This document shows positions 178 to 63,830 of a stretch of 64,000 nucleotides of DNA, piece after piece. The translations under genes were made by a program, and so were the position numbers. The stretch comes from Asterochloris sp. CNOR1. Taxonomy: Eukaryota > Chlorophyta > Trebouxiophyceae > Trebouxiales > Trebouxiaceae. Below the pieces are notes generated by a model. It saw only the letters and a list, made by a program, of their open reading frames with translations, made no database searches and had not been told where the DNA came from. Position 1 is the first letter of the stretch. Each line of letters opens with the position of its first letter. Location of the stretch: assembly GCA_963969365.1 (NCBI GenBank), contig OZ017762.1, forward strand, positions 1,922,001 through 1,986,000, in the 5' to 3' direction.

Positions 178-3100
178 GTGACAATGCACACGCTGGCCTC
201 CTTCACGGCACCAACAGTGTCCGAGTCTGTAAACGAGGACTTCTCAGTCAGCACCGTCACCTCTGGTGAACTGCATATTGTGTGCAGCAACTCTGCGTGC
301 AGTATTTCGGCAGGCTGGGCCACACTACTGCATGCTCACGCAAGAGATCTGCTGCCTGGTGGATGATCTACTGATCGCCACTTCTAGAGGAGTGGTGCGG
401 GCTGGGGCGTGCCATGCTGCAGGGTTTTGCTAGGGTGTCTGTGTGACGTTTGGTGACCTTTGCTGGGTGTGGTACCAGGCTACAGTATGTCTCAAGGTGT
501 CTCAGGCAGCACCTGCCATCTTTGGGGAGCTGTGCAGTGTGCTGCATGGCGATGTTGTTCAAGTCAACACCCTTACCTTTGGTGAGCTGCGCTGGGTGTG
601 CATTACTTCTTGCGGAGCAACAGGGGCAGAGTGATCCAAGTGCAACACGCACAGTAGCAACACACGTTTCATTGTTTCATGCTACAAGCTGTGCTGCAGG
701 CTCCACGCAGCCCCTCAAAAAGGCACCAGCATGGCTCAAGCGGCCAGCAGGCGTGGCCTTTGGCTTTGGCAACCGCCTTGTGTCCTTCAGCAACACAATG
801 CAGCAGAGCCAGGATGGCCAGATGGCGGGGGTTGGCAGCGTCACCATTCAGCAGGTGGGCAGGCTGTTACACTGTACTTTACAGGCTTGCATGCCAAGAG
901 GGGAAAGGAAGGGGGGGCAGAGAGGAGGTATAGGTAGGCTAGCACCAGTCTTGAACGGAATATCTGCATTCTGTGGGCTCATGGCCCCGCACTGCCCACC
1001 AGCAAGCAGCTGACAATGAGCTGCAATGCCCGGCACAGCAAGCTGTGATAAGAGGATGTCTCCCAGCCTCCTGCTCACTAAACAGTCATCTGTGTGCCAT
1101 TAGGTGCCAGAGCAAGAGGAGGTGCTCAGGCAGGCTCCCCATGACAGGACCCTAAATGCTGCTTCCCTGAGATCATAGTTTCATGAGACTCTGTCTTTTT
1201 CCCTGGGAGGTTCAAGAGGCAAGCTGCAGCGTTTCTACCAGAATCAATGCATGGAGTTTTGCTGTACAGCTGGGCTCTCCCGTCCCCTGCAGCAGCTGAC
1301 TGAGGTTATACTGCTGTGAAGGAGCTGCAAGAGGTCGAGATCGCCAGGCACGCAGCTTCAGAAGCAATGCAAGGATCTGTGCTGTGAAGCTGTGTTTACC
1401 TGTTCCCTGCAGGAGCTGACTGAGCCAGAGGTTGTCAGGCAGGCAGAGGAGTTGGAGGCAGCCCTGGTGGGGCAGGATCAGGGCGCTCTGCAGCAGCTGT
1501 GCCAGGAGCGGGCAGCCAAGGCAGCCAAGCCAGAGGACAAGGAGACTTGGGAGTTCATGAGAGTCCTGTTTGCAGATGACGCCCGGCGGTGAGCGCGCTG
1601 TGGGTTAAACCCTGAACCCTAAACCCCAGCACGCTGTTCTCTGGAGGCTGTGAAAGCCCTGGCAGGTGCTGGCTTTGGATGAGCCTCAACACATGGCTGG
1701 GTGTCATTTTGCAGTCCTGCATGACGTCTGAAATTGTGCAGGTTCTGCGCATGGGCCAAGCCGGTCAGTGAGTTGGGTGCTGCTTCTTTGTGTTTGTCAG
1801 CCCAGCCTGTGAATGAGGATACCACGCAGTTTGTCTGGGCCTTTGCGAGCAGCCCAAAGTCCTGAGGGCTACTTGTGCTGCCTTCAGGGCCCTCTGAATG
1901 GAAGAGGGCTATCCTAAGGCCCATTTGTTGCATGCAGAGTGCTGCTGTACCATCAGTGGCTGTTTGTCGCCCTGCAGCCTCAACTCTCAGCACCCATACT
2001 AGTGATGCTGTGACATTGCTGCATGCAGCATGAGTCTCAGGCCCATATCTTGTGCCATGCCCTGCAGCCTTGTGCTCCCCTAGTCCCAGTCTTGGACACC
2101 GTATCTGTGCTGCCTACAGCGTGATGCTCAGACCAGTGTCAACCAATCAGTTGTAGCCTCCACCCAGCAGCCCACACGCAATGCATGCCCTGTGCTGCCT
2201 GCAGAGTGCTGCTGGAGCACCTAGGGTTTGCCGACACCCTAGAGCCGTTGCCAGCAGGCCCCACTCCCGAGGCATCCCTGGACGCTGCAGCCGCCAGCCT
2301 GGCTGGCACCAGTCTGGACGATGGGGGCCAGCCAGGCGCCGATCATGGGGCGGGGGAAGCTGCTGAGGGTTTGGAGCCACAGGACGACGCTGACTTCTTT
2401 GACCAGCACCAAGGTGTGCTGAGCTTCAAGCGCCAATTGAGGGCGTGCTGTTTTTGCACCACCACATCAGGGTGCCCTGGGCTTAGGCCACCAACGAAAT
2501 CTCTGCTGTCCAGGCTTTTGTCATGCTGAGTAGTGCCAGGGATGCATGCTACCTGACAGGCCACAGATACTTATGCAGATGTTCAGAGTGGGTCATCTGC
2601 TGCAACAATGCCTGCAGCCCACACAGCTGTCAGTGATAACCTGCTAGCCAGCCTCACTCGTCATCAGAGGATGTGCTGCTGCTGGTTCTAGAGGCCATGT
2701 CTGCAGCCGACACACATCTTCAGTGACACTCAGTGTGTTGGCGCACAAGCTTGCAGTCTGAACTTGTTTGCATCGCATGCAGAGGAAACAGACTTCTTCG
2801 ATAATTTGCCAGCCTCAACGCCAGTCACGCCTGAGAGGTCTGCAGCTGACCTGCTGTCGCCCCGCAGCCCCCACTCGCCTGCTCCAACAGGTGTGTGCTC
2901 CATACTGATGTACTATCCCGTCATGCATTTGAAGATGCATGATCAGTTCTCTCAACCTGTCTGGTCGCAGAGCCTCGATGCTGTGTGCTGATGAGGGCTG
3001 AGCACGAGGGGCCTGAAGGAACACTGCAACGCTACTGAGTGAATGGGACCTGCAATGAGGCCTGACTTTGCACAGCTGCAACAGGGATCTGAGTTACTTG

Positions 3101-6100: not shown

Positions 6101-9100
6101 TGGCCTGCCGTACTGGCTGCAGGTGCCGCCGTGGCTGGCAACGGCGATGGCTATGGCATGACGGACAGCCATCACTTTGGGCAGCCCAGCGTCACCTATC
6201 GCAGCAATGCGACTGCCTCGTATGGCGGCCAGGGTGCCTACGGCAGCGACTACCCTGGCTATGGGGGTGCCCCAGCAGCGCCCCAGCTGCAGCCGCCCCC
6301 TCGGCAACAGGCGGCGGCGCCCACTCCTGGGTCCCCTTATGGCCAGAGGAGCCCCCACAGCGGTGGGGCAGCTGCTGGGTATGGAGCCCCTGCAGCAGGT
6401 GAGCTTTGCTGGCAGACACACCAGCAGTCGTGCAGCGTGCTGCTTGTCAGCAGGAGCTGCCCTGGCAGAGTGGCTAACAATCTGCAAAGTCTGAGTCCCC
6501 TAGGGTCCCCTTACGGCCAGAGGAGCCCCCACAGCGGTGGGGCAGCTGCTGGGTATGGAGCCCCTGCAGCAGGTGAGCCTTTTGCTGGCAGGCACACCAG
6601 CAGCTGCACAGTGTGCTGCATGGAAACACGATCTTCCCTGACAGAGTGGCTGACAAGCAGCACAGCCTGGGTCACCCAATGGTAAGAGAAAACCCCACAG
6701 TTTGTGGCAGCTGCTGAGTATGGAGCCCTTGTTGCAGGAGAGAACGGCTCTGCATGCTGGTGTGGAGGGCAGCAGGCAGAGCAGGTCTCCTGCTCTTTGG
6801 CCAGACTGAACCTCTGCCAGCTGTAGAGACGGCTTCTGTGGCGCCTAGGCATGGCAGCGCTGGGCAGAGGGTTTTATAGCACTGTGCGTCCATGCAGGTG
6901 GCTATGGTGCCAGCACAGCTTCCACAAGCTACGGCGGCAGCTTTGGTGGAGCTCAGGCAGGTTACGGGGCAGTAGGGGGAGCTCCGCCCGTGGGCGGGGG
7001 CCAGTACGTGCAGCAGCCCACCGCTCCCCCGCAGCGACTGGTGGGTCCAAGCTGCAGCATGACAGGGTGCTCCTGTGGCAAGGCTGAGTTACTTGCGCTG
7101 CAATTGGTGGCAATCCCTATATGTAGCAGCCCACTGCAAGTCAATGGCGACTCTTGTGTGCAGCGGCTCGCTGCTGCACCGTAGCTTCTGATGGCTCACA
7201 TTTTGCAGCAAGCTGGATGCACGAGGCTGCGAATCAAGGCACCACACAATTGCCACCTGGGTGCCATTGAGGTGTAATGAAGGGACAATCTCAGAAGGCA
7301 TCCAGAAAGCTTTTGCAAGCTGCCACACAGCAGCCCTGGCCTTTGCTACATCTCCACCACGTTACGTGCTGCTGCAACTATTTCATCATGTATTGGCCCT
7401 TGCCATCTGTTGTGCAGGTGCTGCTGCAGCACAAGCTCATGGGCCATCAGGCTTTAAGTGAGTCACACACCTGCCATCTGGGCTGCTGCTGGGTGGCACT
7501 GCAGATGATGCGCTCCTGCAAGGAGTAAAATCCCTGGACTGGCAATATGACCCACTGGCGCTTGTCCTACAGGTGCCGCCGTCACGCAACCCAATGGGGC
7601 AGCAGGCGGCCTGGGGCCAGCTGCAGCAGCAACAGGCCGGGGCCCAGCAGTGGTCCCAGCAGCAGCCCAACGTGTTCCCGCCAGGCTCTGCAGGCGGCGG
7701 CAGCGGGCCACAGCCGCTGCCCCAGCCGGCCATCTTCAAGCCCCAGCAGTCCAGCAGGGCTCCACCTGCTGCTGCTGCCCCAGCGCCAGGGCCGCAGGTG
7801 GGCATTGCACCACTCAGTCTTTTGTTGTTCCTTACTGTAGTGGATCTAGGATCTAGAATGTAGGTCTCACCTGCTTCTGCTGCCCCAGTGCCAGGCCTGC
7901 AGGTGGGCATCTCACCACATGGTCTCTTGTTGTTCTCTAATTTAGCGGGTTCAGGACTTAGGTTGTACCTGCTGCTGCTGCCCCAGCACCCAGGCTGCAG
8001 GTGGCCATCTTGCTGCTTGGTCCCTACCACTCTATGCTTCTTGTCTGTCATTTTTGTGCTGTACTGGGTGGCTTTGGGCGGCTGCGTCCTGCAGGCCATG
8101 CTGCTCCCACCAGCTGGTGCTGCGCCTGCCGTGCTGTGGCTGCCAAAGTGGGGATAGGTGGCCTTCTGCATGCTGTCAACTGGGTCAGCCTGACCGCGCT
8201 TGAAGCTCCAAAGGCCCAGCCAGAAGCCGGCGGCTGCTGCTCCCGCAGCACGAATGCTGCTAATCAGTGTCTTGCAGTCTGTCTGGTCATTTTGAGTGGA
8301 ACTGGCTGCATCTTGAGGTCTCAGACGCCAAGCTGGGGGACCCAAGACCCTGCTGCTGCCCTGCCTGCGCGTCAGCAATTGCATAATGTCCTTCTCTGGT
8401 GCACCTTTGGCTTGTTAGTGCTCAATCAGAAGCTGCCAGCGTGCTATCACTTGCACTGCCCCAAGTGGCCTTAGTGCCAGCATGTGCCTCATGATGGTTG
8501 AGGCTTTGACAGGGCCGCCAATGCTGTGCCCTGTAAGTCTCGTGGTTGTGCAGCCCATACCTCTGAAACAGACCAGCAACTTGGCCACGATCTAGCTGTC
8601 CTGCTGTAGGTGCCACTCCTGATTTGCAGTCTGCTTTGCAACTGTAGGCAACGGTACTGACCTGCTTCACAATCCAACTCCCTGCTGCAGGCTGCCCTGG
8701 CCCAACGTGAGCCAACAGCCTCCCCCAGGGCAGACGCTGCAGCTGGGGCAGTCTGCTCTGCAACTCTTGTTGTCAATACACTGGATTTCAAGGTTCTATC
8801 TGTCACTCTTGAGCCGCCTCACAGTCCAACTCCCTGCTGCAGGCCGCGCCTCAGTTTGTGCCCAAGGCCTCCCCCAGGGCAGGCGCTGCAGCTGGGGCAA
8901 CCCCCTTTGCGGCAGCGGGGTCCCAGCCTGGCGCCCAACACTCCTTTGCGCAGCCGCCCCAGCAGGTGCGCTTCGAAAGCATCGAGTCCATATTCCTGCA
9001 AGGTTCTGCTGCTGCGCTGAGCATGTTTGGCAGCTCAGTCCGTGAGCTTTGGTGCCGCACTGGGCACGCAGGTGGTCTACAATTTATGCCTGGGCATTGA

Positions 9101-15400: not shown

Positions 15401-18400
15401 TCGAACCCTGTGATTAATCAACAGACCTTACCCAGCCGAATTGCCTCACCCTCTCTGTTTTGCAGACAAGGAGAGGTGTTCATGCGAGGAGCCCACCAGT
15501 GCTGTGGCGCACTCGCAGCTTGCAGCCCTATCACTGTCTGCAGTTGTGCGGAAGTCGTCTGTGTCTGCCTGCAGACAAGGAGCGGGGCTCATCTGAAGAG
15601 AAGGTGGACGCTGGGGCGCGTTCGCAGCCTGCAGGCCTGTCGACCTCCCCAGCACAGCACCAGTCGCCGGGGCCTACTTCCGACTCTGCCATTGTTGGGG
15701 CTCGGCAACCACAGACCTCAGGCACAGGCCAGGGGGGCCAGCGCAAGCGCACTGCCTCAGGTGAGCTATGCAGCAGGGATGGCACTCTCTGGCTGAGTGA
15801 CACCCGCGGGACACAAGGCTGTAAGCACCTGTTGCAGACCTCTGGTGCTTTGAGGGCAAGGGCAAGTCAGTATGACCAAAAAGACTGCCAGTCTCTGAGG
15901 ATCTGCAGCCTGCCTAGCCTGCAATGGAGCCTGGAGGCACCTCTCAGCAGCAAGGTGCTGTGAGCCCTCTGGGCTCTAAACTGATGGCTGCTCGAAGAAA
16001 CACATCAGTCGAGTCAAAACTCATGAAGGAAACTGCATGCTATGGTGCCCTGCAGTCGAGTCCGAGGCGCGACAGAGCAGCAGGTCTGCCCTTAGTCCCA
16101 CAGCCTCAGTGGGTGTGGCTCGCAGAGCCAACTTATCAGCCGCAGAGTTAGCTCTGGAGGAGACTGCAGCCTTCCGTCGCCAAGTGTTGGAGGTGGACCC
16201 CGATGCCCCAGCGGCCATGAAGGACTCACCCCAAGTGTCGGGAGAGGAAGGTGAGAGTCTGTATGGTCCTGTTCCCTGAGCCTTTCAGAGTGGTCGTGGT
16301 GGCTGCTTCTAGCTGTTGGGTGTTCGAGGTGCTGAGTTGGGGTGGTACCAGCCTCACTGCAGAGCTGCCCCTAGGTTCAGCACTGGCTGGTCTGCTGCTC
16401 CAGCTTTGTGCTGTGCCTGCTTCTGAGCAGCCACTTCTGCTTCTGCAGAGCTGCCCCCAGGTTTTAACCGCTCTGGCGCCGCTGCCCCAGCCAATGGGTT
16501 GCTGGAGGAACTGGCTGTCGACGCCCTGCCCATGCAGAGCAGATGGGCTCAAATGGACGATGACCTGCCTGCCAAGCGCAAGGGGGGGGACAAGGTGAGG
16601 TGGCCGTCCTGTGGGGCGGCCACTCTCCTCTCTAGGGGGCGATGCATGTTGGTGTGTGAGGCCCCTCAGCTCTGTACTTTGCTATGCTTGTCCCTCTTTG
16701 TGCTTGTTCCATCTGCGACTTAGACAGCGGCCCAGTTTGGTATGCAGTGGGAACCATGAGCCTCACTGCACCTTATATTGAGGCAGCTGATTTTGTGGCC
16801 ATTTTTCTCTGCAGGAACTGTCTGCATGCTTGACAGCTCCACACCAGCTGAGGTCTCAAGAGGTCCAGGCGTCTCACATGTTGAGCACCTGCGGCTGAAA
16901 CTCTGCAGCACTACTGCTTGACAACTGGGGCTTACGCATTTATCGTTCATGCAGGAGTCCTCTGCCAGACAGACAGCTCCCCACCCAGCACAGGCGTCAG
17001 AGGCCGAGGAGAGCCAGGTGCAGGACGCAGAGGGTGCGGATGGCGATGGCCAGGTGGGCGACAAACCTGTGCGACTCCATGAGTTTGTGGAAAAGTGAGC
17101 AGCACCCTGATCGCCCTCATCACCCTGTAGTTCGTCAGGTTTGTGAGAGCGTTCACATTCAACGCGAACAGCTTGCGCGGTGGACGAGCAGGACTGTCCT
17201 GTTGCCATGCTTTCTTGGTACATGGGCAGCAGAAACTCTTGCCTGAGGGAATTGCATGTCCCAGGTCAGCATGCTCAGCTGCTGTCTGCCACCTGACTGC
17301 AAAATCTCAATCTGTGCGCAGGCGTTGGACTACTGGGGGGTGATTTTGGCTCGGTCAAGTCTCTTGAGATGCATGCTTCAGCATGCAGTGCTCCCGCCTG
17401 TTATGCAGGTTCTGTCCATACTCGCATGCTTCCTGCACAGCAAGGGCGACTGTTGGGGCACAGCACACGCCTCACCATGCCCACACCTGCCTGCTGGATA
17501 CTCCACTGTCCGGGGGCTTTGCATGCCTTGAGATTAGCATGGTCCACTCCAGTGCTGGGCATGCACGCCTCCAACCAACCCTGACAGTACTCACTCACGT
17601 CTGCAGGGGTGGGACTCCCCCAGGGGCTTTGCGCGCTCTGAGATCAGCATGCTCAACTCCTGCCGCAGCGTGGACCTGTTCCAGCGAGTCAACATGGTCA
17701 ACGAAGGGACATATGGGATGGTGTTCAGGTGGGGACACAATTGTGCGCAGCCCAGTGCATGGCTTGAGGCCTGCCCGGTCTGGTCTGCAGGGTCATGCGC
17801 CTTCACACCGGCCGGGACTTTTTGCTCGGAGTGAGAGACATTCTTAGCCTTCTGCTGAGCCCAACCTTGTGCTCCGCAGGGCCAAGTTAAAATCTGACCC
17901 CAAGAGCTTCTATGCGCTCAAGAAGATCAAGCTTGCGCAAGAGAAGCACGGCTTCCCCCTGACCTCGCTGCGGGAGATCAACATCCTGCTGTCCCTGCAC
18001 CACGCCAACATTGTGAATGTAACAGAGGTGCGTCAGTCCTATGCCCATAAATTATGTATAGGGGAGCACACCTGTATGGGACATCATAGAAATTCGCTCT
18101 GCCATTGGTGCAAGGGGCCAGTATTGCCACTGTGACGGAGATGACACAGTTATTTGAGGGCACGAGCGTACAGTCTAAGCCGAAGTTTGAGCATGCTGTT
18201 ACGGATCTGGAAGCCTCAGTCTGCAATCTGCTGCCCACTTGACGGGTGTGAGCTGAAGGTTTCTTGATGAAAGCATGAGATGTAGCTCCTACTGGGCTTT
18301 GAGCAAGATGCTGTGCATCTGGAGTCACATACGGGCACACCAAGAGCATATGCCCTTGAAAGCCCTGGCTCAACCTGTATCTGCAGTACTGCTGTCTGTG

Positions 18401-21400
18401 TGGGTGGCAGAGGCAAGTGACACCTGTTGCCCCTCAGACTCCCCACAATACTCGTTGCTGTGCAGGTGCTGGTCGGTGGCAGAGATGACCAGGATGTGTT
18501 CATGGTCATGGAGTTTTTGGAGCATGACCTGAAGGGGTTGCTGGAGCAGGGGCGTCTGAAGGACTTTGGGCCCTCAGACGTGAGTTTGTTGGGCTTGCCA
18601 TTGCCGTTCTCTCTCAGATGAAAGATGTTGCTGCTGGAGCTGAGGTGCCTGCAGGACTTTGGGCCCTCAGCCTTGCCGCTTGCAGCAATTCCTCTACTCT
18701 CAGGGCTTTGGCAAAAGTTTTACAAAGCACGTCTTGCTGCTGTCATGCCTTGCATTAGGGGTCGTGGCAAGTGCAGGGGAGGTCTGCCATCATTGCCTGG
18801 CATAAGGCTTGGGAAATATTTGCTATCGACAGCATGAACAGCAGCTGACGCTCCTCACCTGCCTGCCCTGCAGATCAAGTGTCTGATGCAGCAGCTGCTG
18901 AGCGGCGTGGCCTACCTGCACGACAACTGGGTCATCCATCGTGACCTGGTGAGCCTGCCTGACACGTGGGGCCAGCAGCTGCACGCTGCAACGCGCAGCA
19001 TCTGTGGCTGGCAGGACACTTCCCGCTTGGCAACTGTTACTGCACCAGGGCTGCTTCAGGCTGGCAGGATGTATACGATGGGCAGCTTTGTTTGCCACTG
19101 CATCACTTGCTGCCGCATGCATTATGACAGCCAGGAGCAACGCCAGCATAGGTGCCAGCAGCCTGGGCTGGGTACATGCAGAAATCACATCATGGACTCC
19201 CCTGCCCTGCACTGGCCTGTCTCACCCAGGAGCCATTCAAAGACTAGTGTGTTCTGTACGCCCAACTGCTGAGATTTAGTTCATGTGGTGTTCACCGTTG
19301 CTGTCCTGCCCTTCTGAATATCCCTAGACCTGTCCACCACCAACCTAGCCTCGTGTGCACCTCGTGGGGCACTCAAAATGCTGAAACACCTGGGCAAGCC
19401 CCCGCCCTGCCCTGCAGAACACCCCACAATCTGTACAGCATCAAGCTCCTTGACTGTGAGCTGCCTTACTCAGTCGCCACCTCGTGCCCTGCAGAAAGCT
19501 CAGGACAACCTTTGCAACACTCAGCCTCGCACTGTGCAACTTTGGCCTGTGGCTGCCTACCTCTAATGCCCCCCTTGCCCTGCAGAAAACCTCGAACATC
19601 CTGTACAGCAACAAGGGGTACCTCAAGATCTGCGACTTTGGCCTGGCGCGCCAATTTGGGGACCCCCTTCACCCGTACACCCCCACGGTGGTCACGCTGT
19701 GGTACCGCGCGCCCGAGGTGCTGCTAGGTGCGAAGGTGGCAGTGCGTTGGGTTTTGCAGACCACTCAGGTGCAGCCACACCTGCGCTTTGCTTGCTGCAT
19801 GGGTGTGCATGTCACGCTCCGTGCATTCTACCACATGGAGGGGCACCCCTACAAGTCCACCAAAGTCGTGCTACGTCACTGTACGCCCAAGGTTCCTCTG
19901 GGTCAACTGCCAGACAGGGCTGGCAGACCCTGCATCAGTGTACGAGGGCCTTGTGGTTGACGGGCAGCTGTTTGCAGGTCTTGTGCCTCTTGTGCACTCC
20001 TCCGCCATACAAGGGTGGGGCTCTGCCCGCCAGGGTGTGCTGCAGTCCTGGAAGCCTACCCCTTGGTCACGCAAGAAAGGGGCAGGCATAGGGGGCCAGG
20101 ATTGCTGGCAGGGCCATGAGGTTCTCTTTGCAAACAGTGCCACAGCTGTTGCAATCGATGGAGGCTCTTGAGCCCCCAGTGGGGGGGCGGTCAACTTTGA
20201 GCGTGGGCAACATCTCTGCTACATCACTGCAGGCCCACCCAACTCACCACTCTGGAGCTCACAGAACATCTGCTGCAAGCTCCCCAATCGATGGTCACCA
20301 CCCCAGTGCTCACACTCGCTCTGAGATGCAGCCACAGCATACCTTCCTGAGGCCAGCCCTGCCCGCCGTCCTGCAGGCTCCAAGGGGGAGTACTCGACTG
20401 CCATCGACATGTGGAGCGTGGGCTGCATCATGGCTGAGCTGATCACGGGGAAGCCCCTGTTCGCCTCCAAGGGAGAGCTGGACTGCATTCAGAAGATCTT
20501 TGGCATGGTCGGGGCGCCCACCAAGCAGAACTGGCCGGGCGTCGAGAAGCTGGACAACTGGCAGAAGGTGGGTGCTGCACGCTGCTGACATGAGTGTGCA
20601 CATCGCCTGCCGCCCACCAAGCAGATTTGGATTATGGAGAAGCTGTAAACTTCGCAGAAGGGGGATGAGCTCTGGTGTGTGGGCATGGGCCAGAAGGGAA
20701 TGTTGGCCTGCACTTGGTGCAGGGAATGGCAGTGGTGCAATCAAAGCTTTCTGCACTGGAGGGCTGCTCAATGGAGGCCATGGTGGCACACACGCCTGTG
20801 AGTTGACAGAGCAGCTGCCAAGGGATGCCGTCAGGGACCTGCGCACCTGACGCTGTACCTGCTGCCCAATTGGGCAGGCTGTCTCATCATCATCCCTGAG
20901 CTGAGTGCATATGGTGCTGGCCAACCTTGAGCATTACGTGGTTGCTAGCGTCTTCTGCTGGCCAGAAACCCCTTTGGCAACCCTGGCTGCTGCCTGTTGC
21001 TGCCATCTGACGTCACCTACAGCGGAATCTAGCCCAGACTTGAATTTATCTCTGGCAATCCAAACTGCAGCTGCTGCTGCTCTCCCACTTGCCATGACCA
21101 GGGTTCCAACCTTACCACCGCCCCTCTTCCCTGCTGCAGTTCAACTTCAATCGCGGCGAGAACAAGCTGCGCGACACCGTCTCGGCTGCCAAGATTCAGG
21201 GGGGCCCCCTTGCTGAGCTGGTCCCCTCAGAGCAGGGGATGCTGCTGCTGGAGGGGCTGCTAACTCTGGATCCCGCTCAGAGGCTGACTGCTGAGCAAGC
21301 GCTGCACCACCCCTGGTGAGCCTTGTTTGGCTTCGTGGGGTCCACCGCTGAGTTTGTCAGGAGCTGCCGCTGCACATACACAGACACATGGCGAAGAATG

Positions 21401-41000: not shown

Positions 41001-44000
41001 TTGTGATTGCTGTCCGGGATGAGGCATGCACTCGCTTCAAGCTGGCACTGGCTCTTGGTTCAAAGAGCCAGGTGGCTGCTGGGGTGCGCTGCCACACAGC
41101 CAGCACAGCACTCCTTTGCAGGTGATCATGAGGCTTACGTGAGCCTCTCTGACTTGACATTTGTTTGGGTGTGCCTGCCGTGCCTCTGTCTGCAAATCTT
41201 GATCTCTTCTCCAAATGAGCTTTTCATGTTTGCGCTGTCACCTGTTGGGATAACTGTCTGGATGTGCCTACGGGAGTTGTCCTGAGAAGGACCCGCAATT
41301 GCCACCCTCTGCTGGGCCTCATACCCCTGCCCTGAAGCCCTTGCTTGCGCGTGCTTTGCACTAATCGAGTCTTTGCTGTGCTCTGCACACCAGAAGCAGC
41401 CTCTGTGCCCTGCTCCAGTCCCTCTTTACCTGCAGGCGCCCTGCCAGCGACCGGCGCTGCACTTCCCCTGCTGCGCCTCCAACCTCTACTCATGCGCAGT
41501 GCACCTACTGATCACTTGACTTTGGCTTTACCCGCATGCTATATGAGACAACTGCGCGTCTACATTTGAGCATCTTTTGCACACTGATTGCCTGCAGGCG
41601 TCCTGTCTGTGGCGGGTGCCCGCAAGCGCTTTCCCCTGCTCAGCCCCACTCTGGAGGGTTTGGCACGCTTTGCCCACCTCATCAGCGTGGACTACTTTGG
41701 GGACCTCATGCAGGTCAGCACAGACTCTGGGCACAGCTTGGATTCTTGCATTGTCCTGTGATTGTGCATGCTGAGGTGGAGGCCCCTGCTTGGACATCCT
41801 TGTCGCTGTGGCTGACGGTGCTGCCTGCAACACCCTGCAGGTGCTGCAGCAGGTGCTGGCTTTCAGAGCTCTGCCCCTGGCGGAGCGCTTGCGCTGCCTG
41901 CTCACAGCTTCTGAGGTCCTCACGTGAGTTGCAAACATGAGCTCACTGCACCGTACCATCTCTGACTCACGACTGACATGCTGTCTGCACTGCGTCCCGC
42001 AGTGGATATGTCTTCTTCTGCCTGGCAGCACCTGCGCTTGTGCACTGCGTGAACCCCATGCCATGGGACCAGTTGGCCATCAGCATGTGGACGCCTCACT
42101 CGATGTAGGCTGCCTGCCTACAGCTGTGACAGCTCCAGTAGAGCGATCAGTTCCCGCACAGCCACCTGCAGGGGCCAGAGGGAGGCCGCCGGGGTCAGTA
42201 CCTATTTACTAAACCCTCAATCCCACGTGCTTACATCTGTGACAGCCCCACAGAGTGAGTTCCTCCTGCTACCTGCAGGGGCCAAGGGGAGGCTCTGACC
42301 GTGGATCGCCAGGAGCTGTACCAGCAGCTGCAGGAGACCATCCCTGAGCTGCTGCTGCAGCCGTTGATGGCGGATGCAGAGTGGAGGGCTGTGCCAGGTG
42401 CAGGACCCACCAGATCTGCTGCCTCGATGTGCATCTGTTGCTGCTGCACATCTGCAGTGCTTTTGTCGCATGTTTGGGCCTGCATGGCCATCAGCATCAA
42501 GCTGCTGTAATGCCTGCGTGCCATCTACATGGTGCGGCTCAATGCCGATGGCTGACCCAGAGATCTCTGCCAGGCATGAGCCTGCATGCTGTCGCTGTCA
42601 TACCTGCACAACAGTCTGCTGCTGCAGCGCATGCTATGGCTCATGTAGGGTGGGATTTGCTGATACCCCAAAGACTGGCAGTCCTCGTTACTTTGTTCTC
42701 CACCCCTAGGCTTGTGTGTCCTGCTCACAGAGGGACATAGGCCCCAAGAGATCTCTAGAGGCTCAAGCAGGAGTGCTCAGCGGCCACTTTGCCTGTGCAG
42801 GTGGCAACTCAACAACTAAACAGTGCCTTGCTGCCTGCACTTGTTTACAACTGCCTCTGGCTTGACTTCTGCTGCTTACAGAGGCCGCTCCAGGGGGTAC
42901 CCGGCTGTCTCCATCAGTATTTCTGCTTGCACAGGTGGCCACATCTGGGTGCCCGCTGTCTGCAGAAGCAGTTGAGGAAGAAGGCAAGCTGCAGCTGTGT
43001 GCATGAACGCAGCCTCTGGCCTGAGCTTGTGTCGTGATGCCTGCAGGCGCTGCTCCAGAGGGGGGCAAGCAGCAGCAGCGTCGGGAGCGTCCAGCAGGAG
43101 TTCTGCTGGCCCAGGTGGGTCTGCGCAGCTTGTTGTGTGACAGAAGGCAAGCTGTGCTGACTGGGCAACACTGAGCATGAGTTGAGACACGGCTGGCACA
43201 GCATCGTCATCTTGTTTGTCTCAGCCTGGCTGTGCCTGCACAGAAAGGTCCCCAGATCATGCAGCGTATAGTCTGCTGTATGCTGCAGCAACTGGCCCCG
43301 TCAGAGCCTGCTCTGAAGCACCTGCAGGTGCAATCTCAGTCCTGGCTGCCCAGCCTGTGAACGAGGCATGCACATTGCTGTCTGACAGCCGAGCTTAGTG
43401 AGAGCCTCGTGAACGTGCCTTTCTCATGGTCGTCCTCTTCCAGGTGACTCAGCAGCTGCTGATGCAACAGGCCAGGGTGTGAGACATAGACTTGCCTTCC
43501 AGATTGCATCGGCAAGCCAAACCTGCTGACCTCTTTGCCCTGTGCAGGTGCCAATCGAGACAATAGTTACACAAAACCCTGGGCCCTGAATCCTAATCCC
43601 CTGTGCAGGTGGCTCAGCAGCTGCTGGTGCAGCAGGCCAAGGGGCTGGACACAAACCGCCTGGCAGGCTTTGTCAAGGAGCTTGGTTGCGCGGCGCTGGA
43701 GCTGGAGACAGGCGACGCGCTGGGCAGCTTGGCTCTGATGAACCGTCTGCTCAGGTGCGCCCTGCAGGGTAGTGTCGGCAAACTCCTAATGGCGCACTTT
43801 GCGTCCAAGTCAGCTCTTGTCAGAAATCTGCTTGATGAAGCCGACACATTTCCAGCTGCATGTAAACTGGTGCAAGGAGGTCGGCTCTGAGGTGGCTGGC
43901 TTGGCAGGGTTGGTGAAGGTGCTCTGCCATGCTGAGCTCCAAAACACGCTTGCGCCGGGCGGTTGTGTTCCGGCCAGCAGTCTGCCCAATGGCGGCGTGA

Positions 44001-45819
44001 CATGTTTCAGGCCTGCTGCGTGGGTGCAGCAACTGATAAACAGGAGAAAGAAGGCTACAAAAGGCCACAAGGCCACGTCAGAAGCTACAGGCCCAGCATG
44101 AGGGCTGCAGACCGGACTTGCTCCTCATCTGTCTGCGCGGATTGAAGGAGTGGCAGCTGGGATGTGGCGCCCATGCTGCTGCAGGCGCAATATGAGGCTA
44201 CGTGGCATGCTGGAGCACGAAGCAGGGACCCCACAGCTGTGGGCAGCTCCAGACACGGCCAGGACCGGACCCAGCGCGGCTGCTGCCCTGGCAGGGGCAC
44301 CTCTGTGGGAGATGGCCCTGCTCCGGAAGCACTACCATCCACATGTTGCCCAGTCGGCTGCCGTGGTGGCTGCCATCCCCCCCGAGGGTGTGTGCATGCC
44401 AGCAGAAACCTGTATGTCAAACCCTAAGCCCTCACCCCACACCTGCAGCAGATAGCCAAAGGTCTGCAGGCTGTGTATTGATCTGTGCAGCAGCCCAGTC
44501 AGGTGCTGTGCTGGCTGTCACCCCCACTGAGCTGGTGGTGGTACATGTGCTCTGGCCTCATCTGACAAGGGATGTTGATATATCGTGTTGAGGAGCTCCT
44601 TTGTGGGAGCTGGCCCTGCTCCTGCAGCACCAAAGTCTGCACTAAATGTCGCTCAGTCGGGTGCGGTGATGGCTGCCATCCACCTCCAAAGGCGCTTGCA
44701 CATGGGCATGCCACACATTGAATGCAACAGCAAAACTAGGAAGCTGCAGGCTGAGCGTTGTCAATGTGTATATGCATCAACCCCCAGATTGCAGGGTGTT
44801 GGCTGCTACTCTGCTGAAGGTGTGTGTGCGGCCCGTCTTTCATTAGCATGCTGCCCAGAAGGTTTGTGTATATGCGGCTAGGCAGCACCAGCAGAATTTG
44901 CAGCCCATGCGATGTTTACAGCAGCTGGTCTGGAGGCTCTGCAGTCAGGCGGTTGTGGTGGTTGCTGAGAGCCCCGAAGGTCCCTCTATTCCCCCTCCCT
45001 TTTCACCACTTGCCTCCATGCTGGTCATAACATGTGTATATATGGAGACCTGAACTGCTAGTATAAATGTGTCCATGTGTTATGCCCGCAATGCAGCAAA
45101 TTGGCCAAGGTGGGGCAATGCAGTGGTGCACATAGCACCCCTGACATCCCTTGACTGTTGTTTCTCCTGTGGCTGGCAGCATCAGGACAGGGTCATGTGT
45201 CCCTTGCCTCATCCCAGGCTGCTCTCAACCCAGGCTGACCTCAGCCATGGCCAGCAGGGTGCCTGTTGTGCTTTTAGCATGAAGCTCCCGCCCAGCGCAG
45301 GAGCCTTGGAAGCCCTCACTGTTTTCTAAGCTGTTCCTGATACTGCAGGCAGCAGCAGCAACGCAGGACTGCTGCTCTCATGGTATTGCAGCAGTTTTCC
45401 CCGCTGCAAGTGCTGTTTCTGTCACTGCAGGCAGCAGCAGCGGAGGATCGCATGGTCCCCTGGCCTCAGCACAGGAGCCTGCCACCATAGCTGCAGCCTA
45501 CAGCACTGTGGGGGGAGCCTTTAACCCGCCGCCCACTGGCCCCAAAAAGCGCCACCCATCCAAACGCAAACAGGCTGGCCCTAGCACCGCCCTGCAGGCG
45601 GCTTCCGAGGACCTTCTGGGCAACACAAGCACAGGCATTGAGGCTGCATCCCTGGAGCAGCAGGCAGTGCTCGATGCTGTGGGCGCCCAATTGCAGCAGC
45701 ACTTCAGGAGTTGCAGGCACTTTGCTGCCAACGAGGAGCTGCGTCGGCAGGCCCAGACACAGGAGCGCCAGATTAGACTGCTGCGAGACCACTTGAAGGG
45801 CAGCACTGGGAAAGGTTGA
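32010..45819 (+). CDS. NOC3: NOC3, nucleolar complex protein 3 (60S biogenesis)
   Basis: NOC3 works with NOC2 in the nucleolus and nucleoplasm to mature and export pre-60S particles. Exons: 32010-32087, 32159-32331, 33709-33803, 34181-34320, 35063-35251, 36310-36450, 36756-36848, 37351-37416, 38200-38349, 38968-39094, 39587-39694, 40366-40557, 41598-41713, 41841-41923, 42279-42397, 43047-43114, 43609-43754, 44185-44387, 45431-45819 (891 residues). The start is basic (MVGLKRKSRPRQ). Family blocks in order: DEYDFSFLDTMDREALDR, RLALLSLLAVFKDILPAYRI followed by RPPTEKEL, REVQRVRDYE, LLAAHPHFNFSGDLL, the basic RKMSKNQKKKRRG, LEALFEIFFRVLKH, LEGLARFAHLISVDYFGDLM, GQGEALTVDRQELYQQL, PLWEMALLRKHYHPHVA and YSTVGGAFNPPP. 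All phases close. Intron 32332-33708 is long and repetitive. The least certain exon is 43047-43114. Confidence 0.92.
32673..32985 (+). repeat. Degenerate tandem array in NOC3 intron 2
   Basis: Six copies of a unit beginning GC(A/G)GCAACC/GCAGCCCTGG(C/T)TGTGCA and often followed by (T/C)GACAGGTGGC start near 32673, 32759, 32839, 32883, 32932 and 32976. The period shrinks from about 86 to about 45 bases. Confidence 0.7.
34021..34480 (+). repeat. NOC3 exon 34181-34320 flanked by its own copies
   Basis: The exon's first half with acceptor is copied upstream (acceptor ending 34051, offset 129; shared CTGCCTGCAGGAGCAGCAGG-like block). Its second half with donor GTGAGC is copied downstream near 34400-34475 (GGTGGTGCCCCAGTTGTACG versus AGTGGTGCCCCAGCTGCGGG, offset about 150). 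Neither copy is an open continuation. Confidence 0.85.
36000..36370 (+). repeat. Four tandem copies around the NOC3 exon 36310 start
   Basis: The motif (G/A)TGACAG(C/G)CT, preceded by a GAAGCAGA(G/A)GAT-like stretch in the closer copies, occurs at 36021, 36134, 36236 and 36361. Periods are about 113, 102 and 125. The last is the coding one (KQRMAVTAS). Confidence 0.75.
36586..36800 (+). repeat. Three tandem copies of the NOC3 exon 36756 start
   Basis: GCGCCTGGCC at 36593, its decayed form at about 36672, and GCGCCTGGCC at 36761, each followed by a CTGCTGG(T/C)(C/G/A)(A/G)TG block. Periods about 79 and 89. Confidence 0.75.
37920..38250 (+). repeat. Three tandem copies of the NOC3 exon 38200 start
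   Basis: CTGCAGG plus GA(A/G)GCAGCTGCTGGCAG(C/T)C occurs with acceptors ending 37924, 38072 and 38199 (periods 148 and 127). The two upstream copies run into stops shortly after the match. Confidence 0.85.
42160..42300 (+). repeat. Tandem copy of the NOC3 exon 42279 start
   Basis: ACCTGCAGGGGCCA followed by GAGGGAGGC-like sequence occurs with acceptors ending 42171 and 42278, offset 107. Confidence 0.75.
42882..42934 (+). other. Candidate mutually exclusive NOC3 exon
   Basis: A 53-base stop-free segment between CTTACAG and a GTGGCC donor encodes AAPGGTRLSPSVFLLAQ and is a tandem copy of exon 43047-43114 (AAPEGGKQQQ...GVLLAQ). It enters in phase 1 and leaves in phase 0, like the downstream exon. 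Including both would shift the frame, so the two could only be alternatives. Confidence 0.45.
43441..43640 (+). repeat. Tandem copy of the NOC3 exon 43609 start
   Basis: CAGGTGACTCAGCAGCTGCT at 43441 matches CAGGTGGCTCAGCAGCTGCT at 43606, offset 165. The upstream copy could be an in-frame 33-base exon, 43444-43476 (VTQQLLMQQAR, phase 0 at both ends, donor GTGTGA). Confidence 0.8.
44296..44695 (+). repeat. Downstream copy of the NOC3 exon 44185 end
   Basis: The exon end coding PLWEMALL...VVAAIPPEG (44296-44387) recurs in the following intron at about 44588-44690 (TTTGTGGGAGCTGGCCCTGC versus TCTGTGGGAGATGGCCCTGC). The offset is about 292 bases. A third, weaker remnant lies near 44797-44830. 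Confidence 0.8.
45341..45450 (+). repeat. Tandem copy of the NOC3 last-exon start
   Basis: ACTGCAGGCAGCAGCAGC occurs with acceptors ending 45348 and 45430, offset 82. The second starts the last exon. Confidence 0.8.
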
Positions 45820-46796: not shown

Positions 46797-49700
46797 TCAG
46801 CCGCCGACAGGGTGCTGTCGACATCGACACCTGCAGCACCATCGAGCGTATTCAATGCTAAGCCTGACAGCCAGCCTGCCACGGGGGCCCTGCACGATAT
46901 GTGGCAGATACGTGCGCAGGGTGCTGCCAGCGTCGCCTTCACCAACTGTGAGGAGCAGTTGTGTTGTGCCCCCAGTGAGTGCAGTGACCCCCTTGGGTTT
47001 CACCACACTGCCCCTGAACATTTCTGCAGGCAAAGCAGATCCTGGCACTGCCAAATCGTTGTCAGTGGCAAGGCTGTATGGGCAGCATTGTGAGCAGTGT
47101 GCTGAGAGGTGCATCACAGGGTGTCGGCATGGGACGAGTCAGTCTCAAGGCTTCACCTGCACCCCCGCTCTCCACAGTCTTCATCTGCTTGAGGCACTGC
47201 TTGGCCAGCTCACTGCAGCGGGAGGTGGCCTCCACGGCGGCGCGACGCCCTGCTGGCGTGTCGGCAATCCACCCCTGCTGGGCCTCCTCAGCTGCACGCA
47301 CAGTCTGCAGGCAGGGTGGCAGGGCTCAGGGACCTACACAGCACAGGCTGTGTGGGCCAGCAGCCCACCTATGCTGGGACACTGAAGCTGTGCACAGGTT
47401 TCGGGGAGGGCAGAGGTGCTCAGCAGGTGCTCAGGGGCAGCTGGAGATCCTGGAACACATGCAAAGTCAGGAACCTGGCCGGTCATCTCAAGCCCCTACT
47501 GGTGGCCCTGATATTGTAGAAACTCTCCTCAAAATGCAGAGCAGCCCATGTCAGCAGGTCTCTCACCTATTTGGCCACACCACCAGCTACGATGATGACT
47601 GTCTGCTGGCGCCAGTCCTTTAAATTTGAAAACCTCAGCTCTTGACTTCCCACTCGAGCTCCAGGGTTCCCACTCGAGTGCCCAACCAATGCAAGCTTGC
47701 TGAGCCCCCACCTCGATTCCTCCTGAATCCCGGATACTCACCTGCTCGGCCACATGGCTAGCCGCGGCAACATACATGAGCTTGCGCCAGTCCTTGGATG
47801 TAGAGTACTGCTTGACCTCAGCCTCCACAGCGCGCATGGCTGTGCTTGCGGCTGCCAGCACGTAGCTGGTTGCGTCAATGGCACACTGCTTGGCCTGCAG
47901 CGGGGAGGGGACCTATCAGAGCACTGCTGGTATCCGGCAACCTTCTGACTGATGACGTCAAGGCAAAAGTGCCTGCCATGCGAGACGGGATGATTGGTCA
48001 CCCACATTTATGGGTGGCAACTAGCGGACAAGCAATTTCTTGACAGGTGTCAGATCAGAAGAAGCACTGCTGGCACACTGCGTGGCCTGCAAGGGCGACA
48101 ATCAGATGATGAGCACAGACTCTTCAGCAGGGCTGTGCTTGCAGCTGCCAGCACGCAGCTAGTGGCTTTGCCAGCACAATTGTCAAGCCTGTGCAGGACA
48201 AAGAGGTAGACAAGCAGGACACAAAGTGCCTTTCACTGTCAAGCGAGGTCTCTTAAGGAGCCGGGCAAAACCCCAGAAGGTCTCACCCAGGCTGTAGCTG
48301 CGCAGATGGCAGCGCAGAGTGGCCAGCGAGACAGACGCCTCTGGGCTTCAGCCAGCTCAGCAATGTATACTGAGGTGCACCATGTTGAGCAGGGCAGAGA
48401 AGTGCATCACCACATGTGGCATGCAAGCAGCTCTGGGCTGCAGCCAGTCCAGCATTACAGATGCGCACAAAGCAGAAGTGAGCACTCAGCAGGGAATCAG
48501 CTGATCCCTTGCTGGGCTGCCTGCAAAACCTACCAGGTTGTAGCTCTGGGCAGCAGCCAGCTCAGCGTTGTAGGCCCGCACGCTGCGGCTCTGCCCCGCC
48601 GCCTCCGACGCGCCCATCGCCTGCTGCTCCGCTGCAGACTGGGCCTGAGCTGTCTGACGCGCCCGCCAGGCGGTGTTGCTGGCTTCGGTGATGGCCAGAG
48701 TGGCATTTGAGGTCGCCTCGGCGCTGCGGGTGGCGGCCAGGGACTGCTCTGCACCGTCCAAGCCGGCCTTGGCAGCCTGCAGGGCGCAGTGGCACAGTCC
48801 AAGCGAAGTCAGGTGGACTGATGCTTGCTGGACCAGACAGCCTGGAGGGAGGCCACATGTGTGGAATGCTCTGCACATTGTTCACAAGCAGCCAGCCATG
48901 GACAATATGCAAAGAAGGTGGGATGGAATGCTTGCAAAACTGAGACGGTCGGACAAAGTGTGCAACGCCACAGCCAAGGACTGCTGTGTGCCATCTGGGC
49001 CTGCCATGGCGGCGGGACTTTCAGCGGCAGCAGGCCACACCACTGACAGGCAACACTCTTTGTCGTGGAGCTGCACGCACTGCGGGAAGCTGCAGTGGTC
49101 CATGCAACCCAACTGCGAGCAAGCTCAATCAGCAACATGCCTTTCAGCTGCTGGGCATGTCGCCCTCCAGACAATTGACTGCAGCAGCATGCCTCCATCG
49201 ATTAGTCAGAAGGCCAAGGCAACCTACCGAAGCAGCACCAGCAGCCTCTGCAGCTCTCTGCAAAGCCAGCTCCACCAGTGACGTGTCTCCTGCAAATGAG
49301 CCACTGTGCATGCCGCCCTCGCTGGCAGCAGCCGCAGCGGCTTCGCTCTTGAACAGGAGCCTGTAGCGCTCAGCCAGCTGGTTGATGTAGCCCACGCGCC
49401 CAAAGCCCTGCTCGATGTTGAGCATCAGGCTGGGGTGATGCAGGCCCAGGTCCTGCTTGGAGGCGCCCTCTGCAGCAGGACAGGCAGAACTCTCTCTGAC
49501 TGCGAAATCATCAGGTCAAGATCTCCCTTGTTTGGGGTGACGCAGCCCCAGATCCTGCTGAGGGGCGCAAGTGGCCTGGTTGGCCTGTCAGAATTAAGTA
49601 TCCCTAGGCAGAGTCCAGGGCAGGCCACTTGGCTGCAGACCTCTCTGACACACAACCAATTGTTTGTGCACAGCACACATGGGTTGCTGTTGCAGCAGAC

Positions 49701-57237: not shown

Positions 57238-57246
57238 GCTGTGCTA
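57238..57246. promoter_or_regulatory. Nine-base gap between divergent start codons
   Basis: The modelled ATG of the - strand unknown gene (57237) and of MIA40 on the + strand (57247) are separated by nine bases. Both 5' UTRs and core promoters would therefore lie within the other gene, unless one start is wrong or lies in an upstream exon. Confidence 0.45.
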
Positions 57247-58813: not shown

Positions 58814-58904
58814 CGTGCACACCTGTCATGCAACGCTCACAAGCCTTGCTGAGCGGACTTCACTTTCAACTTGAGCATAATGCATGTCATGAAATCAGTA
58901 GCTT
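58814..58904. other. Very short convergent gap between MIA40 and MFS genes
   Basis: Only 91 bases separate the two stop codons, so the 3' UTRs of the opposed transcripts almost certainly overlap. No TGTAA signal is visible on either strand inside it. Confidence 0.7.
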
Positions 58905-61900: not shown

Positions 61901-63830
61901 CATCTTTGTAACGGCAGGTGTGCAACACAATGCAGTTGAAAATGGACGGCAAAAAGAGAGCTGCTTGGCACTGCCAAGCTGATGATTTGTGTATTGAAAG
62001 CATCTCAAAGGTGATGGGCTTCTGCATGGCGAACTATGCAGAGTCGCGCCCTCTGGCCTGTGAGGTGTTGTTGAGAGCACTTTGAGGAGAGGTGAGGCTG
62101 CACCCAGAGCAGCCGCACTTGTCACAGAAAAAAGTCTTGCCGGTGCATAGGCCATCAGGCAAGGCTGTGCACAGCGTTGCTAGAGCTGCTGCCTGATCTG
62201 AGTGAGCTTGGACAATGCAGCTGAGCAGAGAAGGATGCTGCAGCTGCCTGACCTTGACAGGGGCCCAGTCGCAAGGTGTCGCAGAGAGCTGCCTGAGCTG
62301 ATGCGCGTCAGCATGCCCTTCTCAGCGCCTGCAGCATAGGTCGGCGACCCATGGAGCTCGCCCAGCTGAAGAGGGGAGATCCAGGCCTGCACGCAGCAGA
62401 GCGCCTTGGGCAGCAGCATGGTTGAGCAGCATGGCACAGGAGAGAGTTGTGAGCATGCCCTTGAGCCATGACCCTGCTGGCAGGCAGGGGGAAGCAGGTA
62501 TGTCAGGGACGCAGACAGCAAGCAGACATCAACCAGCATCTTGTCTTTCTTGATCCCACTGCCGATTTGATGGCAGGCAGGGCTGCAGGGAGCACAGGCC
62601 TGTGCTGGGCACCGGCTGTGCCCATGTGGGTGAGTGTGCACACCTTGACTCGTGGTCTGGGGTCGACGGCCAGGAGCAGCACCTGCAGGGCAGGGGAGAG
62701 CCCGTCCGCCTGCTGTATGCTGCAAGTGAGAAGCCCTAGGTCAGTTGTGCAGGCTTCACTCAGTGGCCACGCATGCCGCGGCCCCTGCGAGCGGCCTAAA
62801 CTGCCTCTGAGAATGCTCAGAAAGTGCACATTCTCACACCAGAGCTCCACGCAAGGTACATGAGGCGACAAAAGACTTGCTTGCACAGGCTGAGACTGAT
62901 GAGTGGCAGTCATTGACCTTGAGCCATTTGCACGCCTTGCAGCGTAGCAGGCACAGGCTGTCTGGATGCAGCATGCCAGCCGCTGCCATCAGGAGCAATG
63001 CCAGCGCAGATGGCATTGTTTGTATGCGGAAGGCTTAACATGGTTGACATAACATACTGCAGCGCCCTGCACAGGCCGCCGACAGGTGGCATGCGCTTTG
63101 CTAGCATTTGCAGGACTTGTCCTCTGCAGCCCTGACCCCTACTGACTCACACCCCAGCCAAGCGGCACTCACCAGCAATCCACAGAGGATGCTGACTGCT
63201 GCCATCAGGTGGAAGGCAAAGCGCCACCCATCAATGTCAAGGGGCCGGCGGCTGCCTATGCTGGTTGCAGACAGGCCGCCCAGCATGCCCCCTGCATGCC
63301 AGCATACCAGACAGCAGTGCCCAGCTGTCATGGTGCTTTTGAGAGGCCTGCCATTGCAGCTGTGTGGCAGTCTACTTTTCTGTGCCCACATGGAGAGGAG
63401 GAGCCTGCCAGCACCACAGCAAGTCCAAGTCATAGTCTGGCGGCCTGCGGAGTGGGCAGGCCACTCACTGAGCAGGGTGCTCAGTCAGCACACTGCCTCT
63501 GGTGGCACCTGTGACTATGGGAGCAATTGCTGAGGAGCCAGACCAGCCTGACCCCCACAGCAATGGCAAAGGTCATGAGCCCAACCTCAAATGTGATGGT
63601 TCAAACTGTTTGCGTGTGATGAGGGGGACGCTTGGGCTGCAGCATGCATGGCACTGAGGAACCTCAGAATATTTCACAGCAAAGCAGCACCCACCCACAG
63701 CGCCGACAAAGTTCATTGCTCCAAAGGCCCGCCCTCTGCTGTCTGCAGGGCTGAAGTCTGCAATGAGGCTCTGAATGCAGGGGATGACCATGGCCAGCCC
63801 AAGGCCATTGAAGCCGCAGAAAACCATGGC
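58905..63830 (-). CDS. Plant-type major facilitator transporter (5' partial)
   Basis: A multi-pass carrier of the MFS_1 type, resembling the little-studied plant group that includes Arabidopsis At4g36790 and At2g18590 (recalled, not searched). Substrate unknown. Visible exons in transcript order: 63830-63695, 63291-63173, 62682-62644, 62365-62253, 61785-61665, 61389-61336, 60800-60734, 60124-59947, 59477-59459, 59361-59259, 59137-58905; phases close, 393 residues plus TAA. Marks: FNGLGLAMVIPCIQSLIADF, SRGRAFGAMNF, RDISAVLKIRTFQILILQGV, FTLWLQLLGFSDPQ, GDKMSRISPDRGRI, ISWCGANNTAMFADVVPAQL, FGFDRSFEGAVAA, ending FFSRLGPYYALDR plus a short tail. One exon is only 19 bases. The first transmembrane helices must lie beyond the right edge. 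Confidence 0.88.
59459..59477 (-). other. 19-base micro-exon in the MFS gene
   Basis: Between CATGCAG and GTGAGC on the - strand, this segment supplies the residues CGANNT. It exactly bridges phase 2 to phase 0 and restores the family motif SW(x)xxxNNxxxFAD(I/V)VP. Without it the two neighbouring exons do not join in frame. Confidence 0.75.

What the first reader, a model, noticed from the sequence alone, without database searches (positions are those of the whole stretch)
855..63300. Introns built from decayed tandem copies of the neighbouring exon edge
At least twenty introns in five of the seven genes (SEC31, CDKG, BT1, NOC3 and the unknown gene), on both strands, contain one to three degenerate copies of the adjacent exon border with its splice site, in local tandem array with periods of about 70-300 bases. 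Clear cases: 6331-6745, 8671-8907, 17505-17675, 18541-18705, 19411-19640, 29456-29790, 30380-30590, 34021-34480, 36000-36370, 37920-38250, 43441-43640, 44296-44695, 48338-48585. Seen directly: the copies and their spacing. Known: tandem duplication of a segment containing AG|GT can create an intron (the tandem genomic duplication model). Inference: in this lineage introns arose or lengthened repeatedly this way, leaving ladders of decoy splice sites. Dispersed introner elements would not produce locus-specific copies, so this is a different process.
Basis: partly seen in the sequence, partly recalled or inferred. Interest (0 to 1): 0.88.

Follow-up and report, generated by a model that had tools for sequence, protein, structure and literature searches.

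The report
Introns littered with exon-edge copies
In this alga-like genome many introns contain decayed, locally made copies of their own exon edge with its splice site; they look like old tandem duplications that made existing introns longer rather than events that created introns.

Summary
All 13 listed intervals hold local direct repeats. In 284 kb, direct repeats 50-350 bp apart number 245, against about 10 expected; none of 45 bits or more is shared between stretches. In 316 kb, 94 of 531 modelled introns (window: 33 of 108) carry a copy of their flanking exon. Decoy acceptors lie upstream of the real one 62:1, decoy donors downstream 40:2. Most copies look non-coding.

Best reading: tandem duplication of short units spanning an exon/intron border. 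The uninterrupted exon keeps its own site, so the intron grows and the extra sites decay. The AG|GT route that creates introns is rare: 3 of 529 introns at score>=22 (0.46 expected), 11 (4.3 expected) at >=18.

Unexplained: similarity is confined to islands far shorter than simulated neutral tandem duplications give, and copies have too few in-frame stops (4 versus 13-18). No RNA and no relative could be examined.

The parts
1239..1304 (+). decayed copy of an acceptor edge; modelled real site in 1359-1424 (exon from 1413)
   Evidence: 79% over 66 bp, spacing 120
6326..6403 (+). SEC31 exon edge with its donor (real copy in my model)
   Evidence: Pfam on the predicted protein: Sec16 Sec23-binding domain
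6503..6577 (+). near-identical second copy of that edge, could itself be an exon (my model has a doubtful 3-bp exon here)
   Evidence: part of a 251-column alignment at 80% overall, spacing 174
6666..6742 (+). third, decayed copy of the same edge
   Evidence: 78%, spacing 340 from the first
7763..8010 (+). ladder of three copies of a donor edge; real donor after 7797, decoys in 7868-7912 and 7967-8008
   Evidence: TRF period 105, 2.4 copies; 77% and 88%
8658..8899 (+). two copies of an acceptor edge, spacing 152; my model has an exon in each (8691-8706, 8843-8965)
   Evidence: 81% over 93 columns
17510..17550 (+). decoy copy of the exon segment at 17620-17660 (CDKG)
   Evidence: 80%, spacing 110
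18632..18670 (+). decoy copy, in the intron, of kinase exon end 18539-18577
   Evidence: 87% over 39 bp, spacing 93; the real exon lies in the kinase stretch that aligns with CDK11B
19401..19445 (+). decoy acceptor edge upstream of the real one at 19569-19615 (kinase catalytic-loop exon)
   Evidence: 81%, spacing 168
30468..30557 (-). decoy copy of the BT1 acceptor edge at 30375-30468
   Evidence: 77%, spacing 93, alignment as long as the spacing
34414..34477 (+). copy of donor edge 34263-34326 (NOC3 gene); my model has a short exon inside the copy (34433-34471)
   Evidence: 75% over 64 bp, spacing 151
36065..36254 (+). two decoys (36065-36143, 36202-36254) of the exon edge at 36295-36379
   Evidence: 72% and 81%, spacings 230 and 125
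37919..38101 (+). ladder of two decoy acceptors (37919-37951, 38067-38101) before the real one at 38194-38228; both copies end at nearly the same exon base
   Evidence: 91% (spacing 127) and 85% (spacing 275) to the real edge, 88% to each other; exon reach 29 and 28 bp
43441..43477 (+). decoy acceptor edge of exon 43609-43754
   Evidence: 89% over 37 bp, spacing 165
44591..44684 (+). copy of exon end 44293-44381; my model has a short exon inside the copy (44628-44660)
   Evidence: 78% over 94 columns, spacing 298
48127..48166 (-). decoy copy of exon segment 47834-47873 (unknown gene)
   Evidence: 88% over 40 bp, spacing 293
48339..48456 (-). two decoys (48339-48367, 48429-48456) of the donor edge at 48544-48572
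   Evidence: 86% each, spacings 205 and 113

Best explanation
Short tandem duplications (unit roughly 60-200 bp) occur in this genome, perhaps by repair of staggered breaks or paired nicks. When the unit spans an exon/intron border, the exon that stays contiguous keeps its own splice site, the second border is spliced out with the intron, and the protein is unchanged. The duplication is therefore tolerated, the intron grows, and the extra border decays as a decoy splice site; re-amplification of one unit makes ladders. Shown: the copies, their excess, orientation, border placement, mostly non-coding state and the shared unit end in ladders. Inferred: break repair as the source, neutrality, and which site is used in RNA.
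For: Excess confined to 50-350 bp direct spacing. Copied exon segments mostly abut the border that faces the copy, with inferred exon share median 35 and 34 bp and never larger than the spacing (0 of 160), as a contiguous unit requires. On the exon side similarity stops sharply at the island end. Order of real and decoy site 62:1 and 40:2. Two decoys of one edge end at the same exon base within 4 bp in 18 of 32 ladders against 4.2 expected (10 of 20 against 2.7 at the stricter cut-off). Exon-exon copies keep frame in 22 of 26; exon-noncoding copies do not (55:49:40 of 144). In 30 three-way sets 166 changes are unique to one of two decoys and 32 to the real copy, decoy changes being flat over codon positions (52:55:59; decoys were found by similarity to the real copy, which lowers the count for the real copy). 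Complete young tandem units exist: L011 72 bp 100%, L012 56 bp 96%, L009 114 bp 93%, with 0 or -1 bp beyond the unit. A simulation of uniformly placed tandem duplications with protein-preserving survival gives 17-19% acceptor and 17-18% donor decoys; 61 (21%) and 39 (14%) of 286 were seen.
Against: In simulated neutral tandem duplications at 75-90% identity the alignment covers 0.81-0.97 of the spacing; in observed no-exon pairs 0.17-0.25. The intron half of the unit is hardly similar (mean z 1.13 +- 0.23 inside the unit, 0.70 +- 0.17 beyond it; 10.6 expected at t=0.2), also in the 23 testable pairs whose exon part is 82% or more identical; short windows show a weak excess there (z 3.6 at 20-40 bp, 3.1 at 80-100 bp, 0.1-1.9 in the other bins). 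Exon parts are shorter than uniform placement gives (median 23, against 45-64 bp for t up to 0.35; 25 bp at t 0.4-0.45 but with only 8 detections). In ladders the nearest decoy is not the most similar (14 against 17, one tie). The simulation predicts 12% intergenic, about 8% whole-exon, 35-38% intron-only and 6-8% exon-interior pairs; seen were 8, 75 and 52 of 286 for intergenic, intron-only and exon-interior, and 7 of 160 whole-exon. Too few in-frame stops in copies.
Confidence: 0.6

Rival explanations
1. Short templated insertions: break repair copies 20-90 bp from DNA 50-350 bp away and pastes it into the intron; copies were never adjacent to their source.
For: Most islands are short and their flanks nearly unrelated.
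Against: Exon templates should lie anywhere in the exon, but they hug the border facing the copy; independent patches should not share an end, but ladders do; direct orientation outnumbers inverted about ten to one (245 to 26); some complete tandem units exist.
Confidence: 0.22
2. Tandem genomic duplication of exonic AG|GT created the introns.
For: A 64-bp intron L009:5358-5421 whose donor and acceptor contexts match (score 43; 24 bp at 96%) and a weaker one in L024 (score 27); 11 of 529 against 4.34 expected at score>=18.
Against: Only 3 of 529 introns at score>=22 (0.46 expected), while 94 of 531 carry a copy of the flanking exon. The L009 case may not be an intron: an in-frame TGA lies inside it and the gene may end there (my reading).
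Confidence: 0.05
3. Copies are real coding parts: alternative exons or gene-model errors.
For: In-frame stops 4 against 17.9 expected (12.9 if 28% of changes fell on the exon side), other frames 29/24.3 and 22/23.8; AG kept in 53 of 62 decoy acceptors; donor-type spacing is a multiple of 3 in 29 of 59; at least one apparently swapped gene model (L016).
Against: No phase-matched partner site (2/4/4 of 66 acceptor decoys have a donor of score>=4 at lengths 0/1/2 mod 3; 6/7/5 at >=3); no clear frame preference outside the islands and acceptor-type spacing mod 3 near even, 28:23:21; flat codon-position divergence of decoys.
Confidence: 0.1
4. Chance: shared splice motifs, low complexity, or assembly artefact.
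For: CTGCAG is frequent: 848 in introns, real acceptors included, against 425 expected from dinucleotides and 554 from trinucleotides.
Against: Edges from other stretches reach score 30 in 7 and 5 of 9460, own edges in 41 and 50 of 473; reversed sequence gives none at E<=0.01 or at 36 bits or more; copies average 83% identity, which assembly errors would not give.
Confidence: 0.02

Closest known systems
[quoted passage not shown] reviewed in PMC3443670: outline with abstract and one section read)
   Same: Local duplication at AG|GT-type sites produces extra splice sites without altering the protein.
   Different: There the intron lies between the two copies and is new; here existing introns carry extra border copies inside them, and the donor-to-acceptor match is rare.
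Potato RdRp intron gain (Ma, Lan and Niu 2016, PMC4974935; passages and results section read)
   Same: The duplicated unit spans the 3' end of an intron and the 5' part of the next exon, like the acceptor-type copies here; the same gene has an 83-bp tandem duplication inside an intron.
   Different: There the duplicate became a new exon and intron in one gene; here the copies appear to stay in the intron, in about 18% of sampled introns (94 of 531).
Tandem duplications from repair of staggered breaks or adjacent nicks (PMC5730883; passages read, which cite work in plants)
   Same: Local direct duplications, sometimes repeated several times.
   Different: Mechanism not tested here; only a few young units, too few to judge junctions.
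Introner elements (recalled)
   Same: Many introns affected.
   Different: No dispersed copies at 45 bits or more against 48 local pairs.
Tandem exon duplication (recalled)
   Same: Exon plus flanking intron copied locally.
   Different: Whole exon in only 7 of 160 exon/noncoding pairs.

Membership tests
Tandem genomic duplication intron gain | donor and acceptor of the intron lie in two copies of one segment (spacing equals intron length) | tested here: not met
   3 of 529 introns at score>=22 against 0.46 expected; 1 clear case; not met for introns in general
Tandem genomic duplication intron gain | intron absent from relatives | not testable with these tools
   The genome search states that this genome has no relatives held
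Tandem duplication of border units | direct orientation, local spacing | tested here: met
   245 direct against 26 inverted at 50-350 bp
Tandem duplication of border units | copy abuts source over the whole unit | tested here: inconclusive
   20 of 109 pairs of 36 bits or more cover at least 0.8 of the spacing; simulations differ from the rest
Tandem duplication of border units | same unit end in successive copies | tested here: met
   18 of 32 ladders against 4.2 expected; 10 of 20 against 2.7 at the stricter cut-off
Introner elements | similar sequences in introns of different genes | tested here: not met
   0 hits between stretches at 45 bits or more
Alternative or cassette exons | both splice sites with matching phase | tested here: not met
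Alternative or cassette exons | presence in mRNA | not testable with these tools
   no RNA data held

The most novel reading that the evidence does not exclude
A genome in which introns grow mainly by repeated duplication of their own borders, without transposons, so that a large share of intron DNA is decayed exon-edge arrays. The copies stay readable (few in-frame stops) because the decoy sites are used at a low level or were used until recently, making introns a standing store of spare exon edges.
Probability: 0.2. Interest if true: 0.85.

Novelty: new variant of a known kind. Interest (0 to 1): 0.62.

Why it matters
How introns get longer, and how genes survive local duplications across splice sites, is usually argued from few cases (my knowledge). 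Here 94 of 531 sampled introns carry a visible copy of their flanking exon, the order of real and decoy site is nearly absolute (102 of 105), and about a hundred natural decoy sites of known origin in this sample alone (66 acceptors, 43 donors) could test how a spliceosome chooses. It also warns that gene finders can pick the wrong copy.

Tried and rejected
Rejected: chance and shared motifs; dispersed elements; selection keeping the CTGCAG of decoys (first suspected; TGCAG is retained to a similar degree in intron-intron columns, so not needed); a 12-fold CTGCAG excess (an artefact of base-composition expectation); a preferred 93-bp spacing (P 0.054); an age order along ladders (14:17); identity falling with spacing (rho 0.10, P 0.30, n 105); decoys as cassette exons. 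A first gene finder fused genes and was replaced. Pfam on one short exon gave nothing. A per-window extension test over both sides was refined.

Limits: gene models are predictions. Rows dropped: genes scoring under 30 (intron counts) or 15 (labels); introns under 60 bp; introns within 40 bp of a stretch end; pairs with exon on both sides in the exon/noncoding tests; pairs with under 12 exon columns and under 20. The simulations use assumed exon constraint and indel rates. Counts between stretches treat the window as 7 pieces. Near and far pairs compared differ in length (45 against 22 bp).

Papers: search listings only for (no result); PMC3443670 outline with abstract and one section; PMC4974935 passages and results section; passages of PMC8469720 and PMC5730883. 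No paper describing this pattern in an alga was seen in those listings; the library is partial and this is not a full literature search.
Full report
What was examined. The window is C17:1922001-1986000 of an unnamed 56.4-Mb genome of 21 contigs with no relatives held. I added 22 stretches of 10 kb and 8 nuclear stretches of 4 kb, 316 kb in all on contigs C1-C18. A further stretch, L032 on C21, has 39% GC and is plastid-like. The organism was not identified.

The repeats are real. The window against itself gives 26 direct hits at E<=0.01, all under 500 bp apart; the reversed sequence gives none. In 284 kb at 26 bits, 245 direct pairs lie 50-350 bp apart where pairs 1.2-9 kb apart predict about 10; inverted pairs number 26. 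At 45 bits there are 48 local pairs and none between different stretches; at 40 bits 77 and 3, at 36 bits 105 and 39, the space between stretches being far larger. Repeats occur in 28 of 31 nuclear stretches.

They are tied to exon borders. Gene models came from an HMM gene finder trained on the sample. Pfam found Sec16 Sec23-binding, protein kinase, BT1 and NOC3/CBF domains in the four predicted proteins given, and residues 447-778 of the kinase align as one stretch to CDK11B. Of 258 pairs 119 include a border, against 62.7 +- 6.5 after random shifts, and 46% against 16% for distant chance pairs, which are shorter. Introns scored against their own exon edges reach 30 in 41 (donor) and 50 (acceptor) of 473; against edges from other stretches, 7 and 5 of 9460. 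In 94 of 531 introns there is a copy of the flanking exon, and 151 have any local duplicate.

Anatomy. In 105 pairs with one clear border, the real acceptor is the downstream copy in 62 and the upstream in 1; the real donor is the upstream copy in 40 and the downstream in 2. The copied exon part is short (inferred share median 35 and 34 bp) and mostly touches the border facing the copy; it never exceeds the spacing (0 of 160), and a whole exon is included in 7. Where both members are coding, spacing is a multiple of 3 in 22 of 26; for exon/noncoding pairs it is 55:49:40. Ladders of two decoys end at the same exon base within 4 bp in 18 of 32 (4.2 expected), or 10 of 20 (2.7 expected) at a stricter cut-off. 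Decoys change more than the real copy (166 over two decoys against 32) and evenly over codon positions, with a bias in how they were found. AG is kept in 53 of 62 decoy acceptors and GT in 23 of 39 decoy donors.

Creation or lengthening. If an intron was made by duplicating an AG|GT segment, its donor context must match its acceptor context. That holds for 1 of 529 introns at score>=30 (0.00 expected), 3 (0.46) at >=22 and 11 (4.34) at >=18. The clear one, L009:5358-5421 (64 bp), may not be an intron at all. So the evidence is mainly for growth of existing introns. If each detected duplication added its spacing, roughly 15% of intron DNA (26.9 of 176.7 kb) came this way; this rests on taking spacing as unit length.

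How it most likely works. A tandem duplication across a border leaves one exon contiguous; its own splice site stays in use and the rest leaves with the intron. Random duplications with this survival rule, simulated on my gene models, yield 17-19% acceptor and 17-18% donor decoys; 61 and 39 of 286 were seen. Other classes fit less well: intron-only 35-38% predicted and 75 of 286 seen, exon-interior 6-8% and 52 of 286, intergenic 12% and 8 of 286. Repair of staggered breaks or adjacent nicks is a known source of local tandem duplications (PMC5730883, passages). Here it is an inference; the three youngest units show no extra junction homology, too few to conclude.

What does not fit. Observed no-exon islands cover 0.17-0.25 of the spacing at 75-90% identity where simulated neutral duplications cover 0.81-0.97. 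Intron flanks of copies are barely similar (z 1.13 in the unit, 0.70 beyond), also for well-kept copies, with a weak excess in short windows. Either spacers turn over fast by large indels, or many copies are short patches. Border-hugging and shared unit ends argue against patches, so I keep tandem duplication at 0.6. Copies have 4 in-frame stops against 17.9 expected, or 12.9 if 28% of changes fell on the exon side (P 9e-5 to 4e-3), while the other frames match expectation. Gene-model swaps may explain part; low-level or past use of the copies is the bolder reading, though no phase-matched partner sites were found. Among 83 no-exon pairs 8 are intergenic, where uniform placement predicts about a quarter.

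Known or new. Tandem duplication at splice sites is known as a way to gain introns (PMC3443670, PMC4974935). What I did not meet in the listings is a genome where about a sixth of introns hold visible copies of their own flanking exon. Whether other genomes look alike at this sensitivity could not be tested here.

Noticed in passing
L032:1429-1800 (minus), contig C21: 4-kb stretch at 39% GC with an ORF that reads like ribosomal protein S12 (by eye); likely plastid. It has a single weak local repeat (27.4 bits), so it served as a small control.
   Followed up: partly
L009:264-614: In-frame exonic tandem repeat, 93-bp unit, nearly four copies at 72% (31 residues per unit).
   Followed up: no
L009:5358-5421: Best candidate for an intron made by AG|GT duplication (64 bp, 24-bp match at 96%), but an in-frame stop inside makes the gene end an alternative reading.
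   Followed up: partly
L011:1751-1894: Perfect 72-bp tandem duplication inside a modelled intron, the only pair at 100% among those of 40 bp or more.
   Followed up: no
L016:6573-6911: The gene finder seems to have chosen the decayed copy of an exon; the segment called intron reads as an intact GDSL-like exon (motif recalled; sequence).
   Followed up: no
284-kb sample: Many inverted hits with span 15-50 bp (136 at 24 bits or more), i.e. short hairpins.
   Followed up: no
316-kb sample: Intergenic DNA has fewer local repeats than introns (8 of 83 no-exon pairs); could point to a gene-body or transcription-linked process, or to gene-model error.
   Followed up: partly
window 59236-63827 (minus): Predicted protein looks like a multi-pass transporter of the MFS type (by eye).
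   Followed up: no
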